This document shows positions 60,138-63,734 of a DNA stretch of 64,000 nucleotides, piece after piece (position 1 is the first letter of the stretch; every line of letters starts with the position of its first letter). The position numbers and the translations under genes are program-made. The stretch is from Nocardioides solisilvae (GTDB lineage: Bacteria > Actinomycetota > Actinomycetes > Propionibacteriales > Nocardioidaceae): the NCBI RefSeq assembly GCF_003194625.1, contig NZ_QHKX01000003.1:434001-498000 (forward strand). The letters are read 5' to 3'. The notes below the pieces were generated by a model. That model searched no databases. It had not been told where the DNA came from and saw only the letters and a list, made by a program, of their open reading frames with translations.

Positions 60138-60761
60138 TCAGGCCTCCGCGCGGGCGACCTTGCGCGAGTGGGCGAGACCGAGCAGGCCCAGGACCAGGAA
60201 CAGTGCGGCTCCAACGAAGGCGGCGATCGCGGCGTAGCCGGCGATGGTGCCGATCGTGGCGAAGGCGTATCCGTAGAGGAGCAGGCCACGCAGGGTGTTG
60301 CCCATGAAGAGCGACTCGCGCAGGTCCATCCAGGCCTGGGCGTCGGCGGTCTCCTCCTCGGTGGCGTCGGGGTTCTCCGCGACGGCGGCCATCTTCTCGC
60401 GGCCGATGCTGGAGGCCTGCTCGTAGGTGACGGGGTCGCCGTCGTTGAGCGCGGCGCCCTGGCCGTTCATGTGCGCGAGGATGTAGTGGTCGGAGTACGC
60501 CTTGGCGGCGGGACCGTTGTCGAGGGTCTCCCCCGCGAACTCCTCCAGCGCCTTGCCGTCCGCCTCGCTGATGGCGCCGCCGGCGACCTGGCCGTCGATC
60601 GCCTCCTGGGTCGGCATGGTGATGTCCTGCGCGGAAAACTGCTCCTCCACCTGGTCGCCGATGAACATGTTGGCCCAGGTCAGCAGTCCGCCGGCCACGA
60701 GCAGTACCAGGGCCAGCAGGAGGCCGATCCCGGAGAGGACCTTGTCGAGAGTGGCACGCAT
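60138..60761 (-). CDS. Two-to-four-helix membrane protein with acidic central domain
   Basis: 207 residues. One helix near the N-terminus (SGIGLLLALVLLVAGGLLTWA), an outer acidic domain of about 120 residues (EEQFSAQDITMPTQEAIDGQ ... SDHYILAHMNGQGAALNDGD) and two helices at the end. The layout recalls actinobacterial membrane proteins that are often labelled LigA-like without basis. ATG 60761 has an excellent AAGGAG at seven bases; a longer start upstream has none. Two identical palindromes lie 49-90 bases before the start, so it is probably tightly regulated. Function unknown. Confidence 0.78.
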   Translation of the reverse strand: MRATLDKVLSGIGLLLALVLLVAGGLLTWANMFIGDQVEEQFSAQDITMPTQEAIDGQVAGGAISEADGKALEEFAGETLDNGPAAKAYSDHYILAHMNGQGAALNDGDPVTYEQASSIGREKMAAVAENPDATEEETADAQAWMDLRESLFMGNTLRGLLLYGYAFATIGTIAGYAAIAAFVGAALFLVLGLLGLAHSRKVARAEA

Positions 60762-60809: not shown

Positions 60810-60851
60810 CTACTACGGAGAGTAGTAGATAACTACTACGTCAAGTAGTAG
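60810..60851. promoter_or_regulatory. Twin palindromic operators CTACTAC-N5-GTAGTAG
   Basis: Two perfect copies, 60810-60828 and 60833-60851, with different spacers (GGAGA, GTCAA) and 23 bases between centres, about two helical turns. A TTGACG on the minus strand (60844-60839) overlaps the distal copy and may be the -35 box of the leftward membrane gene. Confidence 0.8.
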
Positions 60852-60921: not shown

Positions 60922-60951
60922 TTGACAATAGTGTGTGTGACACACCATTGT
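60922..60951 (+). promoter_or_regulatory. PadR gene promoter with overlapping palindrome
   Basis: TTGACA (60922-60927), an 18-base spacer and CATTGT (60946-60951) form a plausible promoter. The spacer holds ATAGTGTGT-GTG-ACACACCAT (60928-60948), a near-perfect palindrome that would let PadR repress its own gene. Transcription would begin at or next to the ATG at 60959, and no ribosome-binding site is visible. Confidence 0.6.
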
Positions 60952-60958
60952 GTGATGC

Positions 60959-61282
60959 ATGGACGACGACCTCCTGGGCGGCCACCTGCAGGAGCTGCGA
61001 CGCGGCACGGTGGTGGTCGCCGCCCTGGCCACGCTGCGTCGCCCCACCTACGGCTACGCCCTGCTCGAGCGGCTCGCGGAGGCGGGGTTCCCCGTCGACG
61101 CCAACACGCTCTACCCGCTGCTCCGGCGCCTCGAGAAGCAGGGGGTGCTCACCAGCGAGTGGAACACCGAGGAGGCGCGACCGCGCAAGTTCTACTCCGT
61201 CACTGCCGACGGCGCCGCCCTGCTCGAGGCCCTGCTCGACGAGTGGCAGACCCTCCACACGTCCATCGGAAAGCTCAGGTGA
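60959..61282 (+). CDS. PadR-family transcriptional regulator
   Basis: 107 residues. The winged helix is clear: GTVVVAALATLRRPTYGYAL, ANTLYPLLRRLEKQGVLTSE, and the wing ARPRKFYSVTADG, ending in a short dimerisation helix. The family usually represses its own operon and is released by ligands or stress. It begins an operon with the next membrane protein gene, a common PadR arrangement in actinobacteria. Confidence 0.92.
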   Translation: MDDDLLGGHLQELRRGTVVVAALATLRRPTYGYALLERLAEAGFPVDANTLYPLLRRLEKQGVLTSEWNTEEARPRKFYSVTADGAALLEALLDEWQTLHTSIGKLR

Positions 61283-63009: not shown

Positions 63010-63189
63010 GTTCTCCGCCTCCCGCCGCCTCGCCGGGCGCGAGCGCGCCCGTCGGCGTCGACGCCGGTGCGTCGACGCGGACGACGATAGCGACTCCGGC
63101 CGAACCGTCCCGACGCGCGGCGCTGGCCGTCCCGCCGACGTGCACGGGGTGACGCGCCGCGGGTAACGTCGCGGCGTACCGGATTTTTT

Positions 63190-63253
63190 CGACTTCCTGC
63201 GGCCAGGAGGTGTAGATCCCCACGAAGCGGGGAATGACGGCCCGCAGGAGTCG
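63190..63253 (+). ncRNA. Folded leader element upstream of the WXG-like genes
   Basis: CGACTTCCTGCGG (63190-63202) pairs with CCGCAGGAGTCG (63242-63253), 12 bp with one bulged T, and two more G-C pairs inside. The enclosed 40 bases hold an inner stem TCCCC-N7-GGGGA (63217-63233). The element ends 22 bases before the start codon of the first small protein, so it could be a regulatory leader, a processing site or a protein-binding site. No known riboswitch matches it in my reading. Confidence 0.55.
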
Positions 63254-63275
63254 TCTCGTGGGGGAAAGGTAGGAC

Positions 63276-63734
63276 ATGACGCAGGAACAGGTGCTCGCAC
63301 AGACCGTGGCTGCGAGCGTGGGGCTGGGTCCCGTCGGAGTGGCCATCGGCGCGGCCGCCGGGCTGGCCCAGGCCGTGGCGACGGTCGACGCCGTGATGGC
63401 CGAGCTCGAGCGGGCCTCCGACGACCTCAAGGCGGCCGGGATGGCCGAGGTCGGGGTCAACGACTTCGGTGCGTCGTGGGCCGGCACGAACCTCGGCACG
63501 CACGCGCAGAAGGCGCAGCAGAACGTCATCCAGCAGCTCGACCAGCTCTCCGCGGGCCTCGCCCAGTACAAGGAGGACCTGATCGCGAGCGCGAAGGACT
63601 GGCAGGACACCGACGACACCGTCGCCCAGCCGTTCGTCGCCATCAACTCGATGACGTCGTGCGTCGCGGAGGACTTCACCTCCGACTCCGGCCGCAACCT
63701 CGACAACCAGTGCCTGCCCGGGGAGGACCGCTGA
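63276..63734 (+). CDS. WXG100-like small helical protein
   Basis: 152 residues, largely helical: TVAASVGLGPVGVAIGAAAG then AVMAELERASDDLKAAGMAE, a turn with SWAGTNLG, then a second helix NVIQQLDQLSAGLAQYKEDL. Two helices joined near a Trp-Ala/Gly turn suggest an ESX/WXG-type secreted protein, though the exact W-x-G is not present. It is followed with TGATG overlap by a similar protein. A folded leader precedes it. No ESX core gene is in the window. Confidence 0.6.
   Translation: MTQEQVLAQTVAASVGLGPVGVAIGAAAGLAQAVATVDAVMAELERASDDLKAAGMAEVGVNDFGASWAGTNLGTHAQKAQQNVIQQLDQLSAGLAQYKEDLIASAKDWQDTDDTVAQPFVAINSMTSCVAEDFTSDSGRNLDNQCLPGEDR

What the first reader, a model, noticed from the sequence alone, without database searches (positions are those of the whole stretch)
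60810..60851. Two identical CTACTAC-N5-GTAGTAG operators
Two perfect 7-base palindromes spaced 23 bp apart, with unlike spacers, stand before a membrane protein of unknown function. The repeat of the arms but not of the spacers says they are protein sites rather than a simple duplication. No regulator of a matching type is adjacent except PadR, whose own candidate site is different.
Basis: partly seen in the sequence, partly recalled or inferred. Interest (0 to 1): 0.6.

Follow-up and report, generated by a model that had tools for sequence, protein, structure and literature searches.

The report
Twin operator of a respiration-linked repressor
Two short mirror-image DNA sites in front of an uncharacterised membrane-protein gene match the switch sites of a repressor (BlaI) that sits beside the genes of a back-up respiratory enzyme, which suggests that the unknown protein is turned on together with that enzyme when respiration is impaired.

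Summary
In detail: CTACTAC-N5-GTAGTAG occurs twice (60810-60828, 60833-60851) and nowhere else in the 3.58-Mb genome. The core TACTAC-N5-GTAGTA, up to one mismatch, occurs three times: these two and one between cydA (cytochrome bd) and a divergent blaI-blaR-like pair. In relatives such dyads stand in the cydA/blaI gap (19 of 20 loci) and before mycobacterial blaI genes (20 of 24). In a scan of genome contigs, twin dyads lie at cydA in 27 of 35 hits and before a qcrB-like gene in 4. So the sites are most likely BlaI operators acting in trans; PadR is not the regulator. Twin sites exactly 23 bp apart precede 7 of 56 scored orthologous membrane-protein genes (6 genomes). Of the other 49, 34 carry a DevR/OsdR-like hypoxia box instead; none of the 7 does. 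The gene seems to have changed regulators while staying under respiration-linked control. Binding, derepression and the protein's role are untested. Verdict: a new target of a known kind of regulator, with an apparent rewiring.

The parts
60810..60828 (.). Operator dyad nearer the membrane gene, CTACTAC-GGAGA-GTAGTAG
   Evidence: Exact; core kept at 12 of 12 bases in all 7 site-bearing loci
60833..60851 (.). Operator dyad farther from the membrane gene, CTACTAC-GTCAA-GTAGTAG
   Evidence: Exact; 11 or 12 of 12 core bases and pitch 23 in all 7 site-bearing loci
60138..60761 (-). Gene of the controlled membrane protein, 207 aa: N-terminal hydrophobic helix, about 130-residue polar part, hydrophobic C-terminal part; no known family
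   Evidence: frame with start taken at ATG 60761, which aligns with orthologue starts; hydropathy; no Pfam or NCBIfam match
60959..61282 (+). Divergent PadR-family regulator gene, not thought to use these sites
   Evidence: PF03551, 64 bits; not beside the sites in G023 and G028

Best explanation
The two dyads are operators of the BlaI/MecI-family repressor encoded at G000:C4:49439, which is followed by a BlaR-like membrane protease gene and divergent from cydA. BlaI dimers are proposed to occupy both dyads, 49 to 90 bp before the start codon, and to block transcription of the membrane-protein gene, as they would block cydA and blaI itself. When the BlaR-like protease is activated (signal unknown; respiratory impairment is the likely one, judged by the company of the genes), BlaI is removed and the membrane protein is made together with cytochrome bd. 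Shown here: the sites, their match to the cydA/blaI sites, their near-exclusive genomic location, their conservation in a clade. Inferred: binding, repression, the signal, and any role of the membrane protein in respiratory stress.
For: Own genome: the core with up to one mismatch has three places, the two window sites and one in the cydA/blaI gap; only one strong PF03965 gene (103 bits; a second hit of 21.5 bits is under the cut-off of 22.6). Genus: dyads before 19 of 20 cydA-linked blaI genes and 0 of 10 other BlaI-like genes. Exact core sites in 59 genomes: 25, of which 19 at cydA/blaI and 5 at this membrane gene. Genome contigs: twin dyads at cydA in 27 of 35 stretches, 16 of them with blaI adjacent, and before qcrB-like genes in 4, these with pitch 23 as here. 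Mycobacterial blaI upstreams: dyad in 20 of 24 loci; the closest solved chain to this BlaI is 2g9w, E 1.8e-25 (that 2g9w is M. tuberculosis BlaI is recalled). The presumed recognition helix is near-identical in cydA-linked and mycobacterial BlaI (AYTTVMTVxxRLAxK) and differs in the 10 paralogues (NLH or KLx in place of RLA). Among the 19 genus genomes with the membrane gene, 3 of 3 with sites have cydA-linked BlaI against 2 of 16 without (Fisher p 0.010, kinship not corrected).
Against: No binding or expression data. Only 7 of 56 scored orthologues have the sites. Two genomes with both cydA-linked BlaI and the membrane gene (G066, G017) lack them. Two members of the site-bearing clade, G447 and G520, lack them. 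The pitch here is 23 bp, while at cydA in the genus it is 19 bp in 14 of 20 loci. The cydA/blaI gap of this very genome has one dyad plus direct half-sites, not a twin dyad. Whether G446, G453 and G441 have cydA-linked BlaI was not tested. No promoter was recognised beside the sites.
Confidence: 0.85

Rival explanations
1. The divergent PadR (60959-61282) binds the two dyads and controls both genes.
For: PadR is the adjacent regulator and the sites lie in the gap between the two genes.
Against: The sites stay with the membrane gene where PadR is not upstream (G023, both G028 copies); in G023 a PadR-like frame lies on the far side of the membrane gene, beyond the HAAS-like gene. The same dyads stand at cydA and blaI in many genomes. 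A different near-palindrome (about 60925-60951) lies before padR.
Confidence: 0.05
2. An unidentified regulator of another family, which shares the BlaI-like half-site, controls the gene.
For: No protein-DNA data here; 4 of 35 twin-dyad stretches lie in genomes or places without cydA, qcrB or an adjacent BlaI.
Against: In this genome the only other place with the core pattern is the gap next to the one strong BlaI-family gene.
Confidence: 0.07
3. The palindromes act as RNA hairpins in a leader transcript rather than as DNA sites.
For: Each can form a 7-bp stem with a 5-base loop (sequence).
Against: In the six other site-bearing loci one arm of the outer dyad is changed (TACGAC or GTCGTA) with no matching change in the other arm, which breaks the stem but keeps BlaI-like half-sites. 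The same dyads stand in divergent gaps. No terminator-like site was found.
Confidence: 0.02

Closest known systems
BlaI-BlaR system of Mycobacterium tuberculosis (Rv1846c-Rv1845c)
   Same: Related repressor and same dyad type before mycobacterial blaI genes (20 of 24 loci). Published passages: BlaI binds promoters of cytochrome bd and ATP synthase genes, and mycobacterial BlaR lacks the beta-lactam sensor domain (PMC5473688, passages); BlaI represses Rv1303 before the ATP synthase genes (PMC12565901, abstract and passages).
   Different: Here blaI-blaR lies beside cydA, and the target is a membrane protein for which my searches showed no published link to BlaI. The motif printed for M. tuberculosis BlaI is in a figure I could not see, and the primary paper (Sala et al. 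2009) was not read.
BlaI/MecI operators of staphylococci
   Same: Inverted repeat with TAC/GTA half-sites bound by a dimer, two operators per control region (recalled, not tested).
   Different: Those serve beta-lactam resistance genes; these dyads lie at respiratory genes and no beta-lactamase was looked for.
DevR/DosR and OsdR hypoxia boxes
   Same: A GGG[AC]C-N4-G[GT]CCC box, like the OsdR consensus AGGGCCGATCGGCCCT (PMC5069765, passages), precedes 34 of 49 orthologues that lack the CTACTAC sites.
   Different: None of the 7 loci with the CTACTAC sites has such a box.

Membership tests
BlaI-type operator (actinobacterial, cydA-linked) | Dyad TAC[TG]AC-N5-GT[AC]GTA | tested here: met
   Both sites, 12 of 12 core bases
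BlaI-type operator (actinobacterial, cydA-linked) | Same dyad in the control region of the blaI gene of the same genome | tested here: met
   TACTAC-ACACG-GTAGTA at C4:49243-49259, in the cydA/blaI gap
BlaI-type operator (actinobacterial, cydA-linked) | Twin dyads at the pitch usual at cydA (19 bp) | tested here: not met
   Pitch is 23 bp; 19 bp in 14 of 20 cydA loci of the genus, 23 bp before qcrB-like genes in 4 mycobacterial genomes. I do not hold this pitch to be a defining feature
BlaI-type operator (actinobacterial, cydA-linked) | Bound by BlaI and released by BlaR action | not testable with these tools
   Needs a binding assay and expression data
PadR operator | Sites stay beside padR in relatives | tested here: not met
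   Kept in G023 and both G028 copies without padR upstream
DevR/OsdR regulon member | Box GGG[AC]C-N4-G[GT]CCC, at least 9 of 10, between -150 and -60 | tested here: not met
   Best 7 of 10 at the window gene; 0 of 7 site-bearing loci

The most novel reading that the evidence does not exclude
An uncharacterised actinobacterial membrane protein is a conserved part of the response to low oxygen or a blocked respiratory chain: ancestrally under DevR/OsdR control, it was handed over in one lineage to the BlaI repressor of cytochrome bd. A regulator swap that keeps the physiological input would point to a role beside the alternative respiratory chain.
Probability: 0.45. Interest if true: 0.65.

Novelty: new member of a known kind. 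Interest (0 to 1): 0.5.

Why it matters
It names the likely regulator of an orphan operator and puts a nameless membrane protein into a very small regulon whose other visible target is cytochrome bd. Two unrelated operator types, DevR-like and BlaI-like, stand before the same gene in different lineages and both point to respiration, which makes the protein's role directly testable. It also fits the view that many actinobacterial BlaI systems serve respiration: of 35 twin-dyad stretches found in genome contigs, 31 lie at cydA or before qcrB-like genes.

Tried and rejected
PadR as binder: rejected on neighbourhood. RNA hairpins: rejected because changes in the arms are not compensated. Chance: rejected. 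Five other two-mismatch hits in the genome (L006-L009, L011): all lie in long open frames, and in each one frame reads the TACTAC as tyrosine codons or a tyrosine-containing stretch, so I took them as coding, which is not proven. The three-mismatch list was cut short by the tool and was not used. Five single-mismatch core hits in G023 and G028 outside the cydA and membrane loci were looked at: two look coding, one lies at the end of an S4-like ribosomal protein gene, and two in G023 lie before genes that look like copper-resistance genes (my reading; the one fragment scanned had no Pfam match).

A first tree of 22 rows made the site-bearing proteins one clade; with 56 rows they fall in a 9-row clade that also holds G447 (neither box) and G520 (a 9 of 10 DevR-like box), so one gain with two losses, or two gains. 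The DevR-like pattern and its interval were chosen after looking at the first upstreams; of the 34 site-less loci fetched afterwards, 24 score 9 or 10 of 10 (my count of the rows). An earlier, stricter pattern gave weaker results. L034 was dropped (contig end), so 56 of 57 matches were scored. In one search, L140, L142 and L149 were left out of 19 loci from other genera because the match does not begin at a plain gene start.

The structure of the membrane protein from its single sequence was poor (pTM 0.38), so no fold search was made. Paper searches: the listings showed no report of this motif at cydA outside mycobacteria or of BlaI control of this protein; I opened passages of six papers only. 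Sala et al. 2009, the primary BlaI paper, was not read.

Full report
Observation. The two sites are exact and at the stated coordinates. Single 7-bp palindromes with a 5-bp spacer are common in this 74% GC window (35), but no other arm recurs. In the whole genome the 14-base pattern has these two copies only, against about 0.0008 expected from composition.

Regulator. The genome has one clear BlaI/MecI-family gene (PF03965, 103 bits). It is followed by a BlaR-like protease gene (Peptidase_M48 33.8 bits, over its cut-off of 20.3; Peptidase_M56 28.9 bits, under its cut-off of 31) and is divergent from cydA (PF01654, 520 bits). In the gap lies TACTAC-ACACG-GTAGTA, then six more GTAGTA half-sites at a pitch of 14 bp. 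With up to one mismatch the core pattern has three places in the genome: the two window sites and this one (the reversed control pattern has 12 places).

Relatives, BlaI side. In 59 genomes of the genus the BlaI query has 45 matches in 28 genomes; 30 were given as loci. The 20 best-scoring lie beside cydA and the other 10 do not. A dyad TAC[TG]AC-N5-GT[AC]GTA precedes 19 of the 20 and 0 of the 10: two dyads 19 bp apart in 14, 22 bp apart in 1, one dyad in 4, none in 1. The exact core has 25 places in 17 of 59 genomes: 19 at cydA/blaI, 5 at the membrane gene, 1 between a ResB-family gene and a weakly redoxin-like frame in G013. The reversed control has 23 places (my sum), so the count alone is not special; the location is. 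Mycobacterial BlaI genes have the dyad in 20 of 24 upstreams, with TACGAC as first arm in those shown.

Scan of genome contigs (84,980 species by the tool's description). 35 stretches carry a twin dyad: 27 within 64 bp of the cydA match, 16 of these with blaI adjacent; 4 in Mycobacterium or Mycobacteroides before a cytochrome b (qcrB-like) gene, with pitch 23; 4 others (Anaerolineales, Propionibacteriaceae and Bacteroidetes MAGs, and Enterococcus) without such genes. Of 17 of these loci whose genomes I asked for, 16 genomes were held: 36 exact core sites, 35 at the cydA or qcrB-like locus and 1 before a small four-helix protein in Antrihabitans; reversed control 14 (my sums).

The membrane gene. 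Orthologues occur in 54 of 215 genomes of the genus (57 matches, 56 scored) and in 30 of 296 of the phylum. Seven loci in six genomes (G000, G028 twice, G446, G023, G453, G441) have twin dyads with 12 of 12 and 11 or 12 of 12 core bases, always 23 bp apart, starting at -66 to -70 and -89 to -93 from the ATG; all others score at most 9 of 12. Of the other 49, 34 have a DevR/OsdR-like box at 9 or 10 of 10 within -150 to -60, where shuffles give 4.6 on average; of the seven, none (Fisher p 0.0007, not corrected for kinship). In other genera 9 of 16 scored upstreams have it, shuffle mean 1.1, and none of 19 has the twin dyad. In the tree of 56 proteins the seven lie in a nine-row clade (100/93) with G447 and G520, inside a larger group whose other members mostly carry the DevR-like box. 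A change from DevR-like to BlaI-like control is therefore likely, but it rests on a midpoint root and on sequence boxes only.

Mechanism. I take BlaI to bind both dyads and repress the gene, with release by the BlaR-like protease together with cydA. Published passages say that M. tuberculosis BlaI binds cytochrome bd and ATP synthase promoters and that mycobacterial BlaR lacks the beta-lactam sensor domain (PMC5473688, passages), and that BlaI represses Rv1303 (PMC12565901, abstract and passages). The BlaR-like protein here is short (292 aa), which fits. The signal, the binding and the function of the membrane protein remain inferred. No sigma-70-like promoter was recognised, which says little in this GC-rich group.

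Verdict. It is a new target of a known regulator family, made more interesting by the apparent exchange of one respiration-linked operator for another. The organism is not told; the genus is probably Nocardioides (inference from the named loci and their identity to the cydA and BlaI of this genome).

Noticed in passing
L004:1304-1405 (G000:C4:49242 onward); also the upstream of L040 (G028): In the cydA/blaI gap the first dyad is followed by head-to-tail GTAGTAC half-sites at exactly 14-bp pitch: seven GTAGTA in all in this genome, four in G028. It looks like a growing or shrinking operator array.
   Followed up: partly
Upstream of L021-L037, L193-L227 (gene at 1501 or 401 in gene orientation): Orthologues of the membrane gene without CTACTAC sites mostly have a DevR/OsdR-like box, typically at -110 to -122.
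   Followed up: yes
L094:2648, L107:7103, L116:3202, L117:4044: Mycobacterium/Mycobacteroides: a pitch-23 twin BlaI-like dyad directly before a qcrB-like cytochrome b gene; these genomes have no other exact core site.
   Followed up: partly
L121:1501-1517: Antrihabitans: a single core dyad before a 146-aa predicted four-helix membrane protein with conserved-looking histidines and no Pfam family over its cut-off.
   Followed up: partly
L186:1501-1517: G013: an exact core dyad between a ResB-family gene and a weakly redoxin-like frame, a few kb from a BlaI paralogue.
   Followed up: partly
60925-60951: Near-palindrome ACAATAGTGTGTGTGACACACCATTGT just before padR, the likely PadR operator.
   Followed up: no
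63180-63275: Non-coding leader with complementary segments (CCTGCGGCC / GGCCCGCAGG, CCCCACGAAGCGGGG) before a small gene at 63276-63734; might be a structured RNA. Not searched.
   Followed up: no
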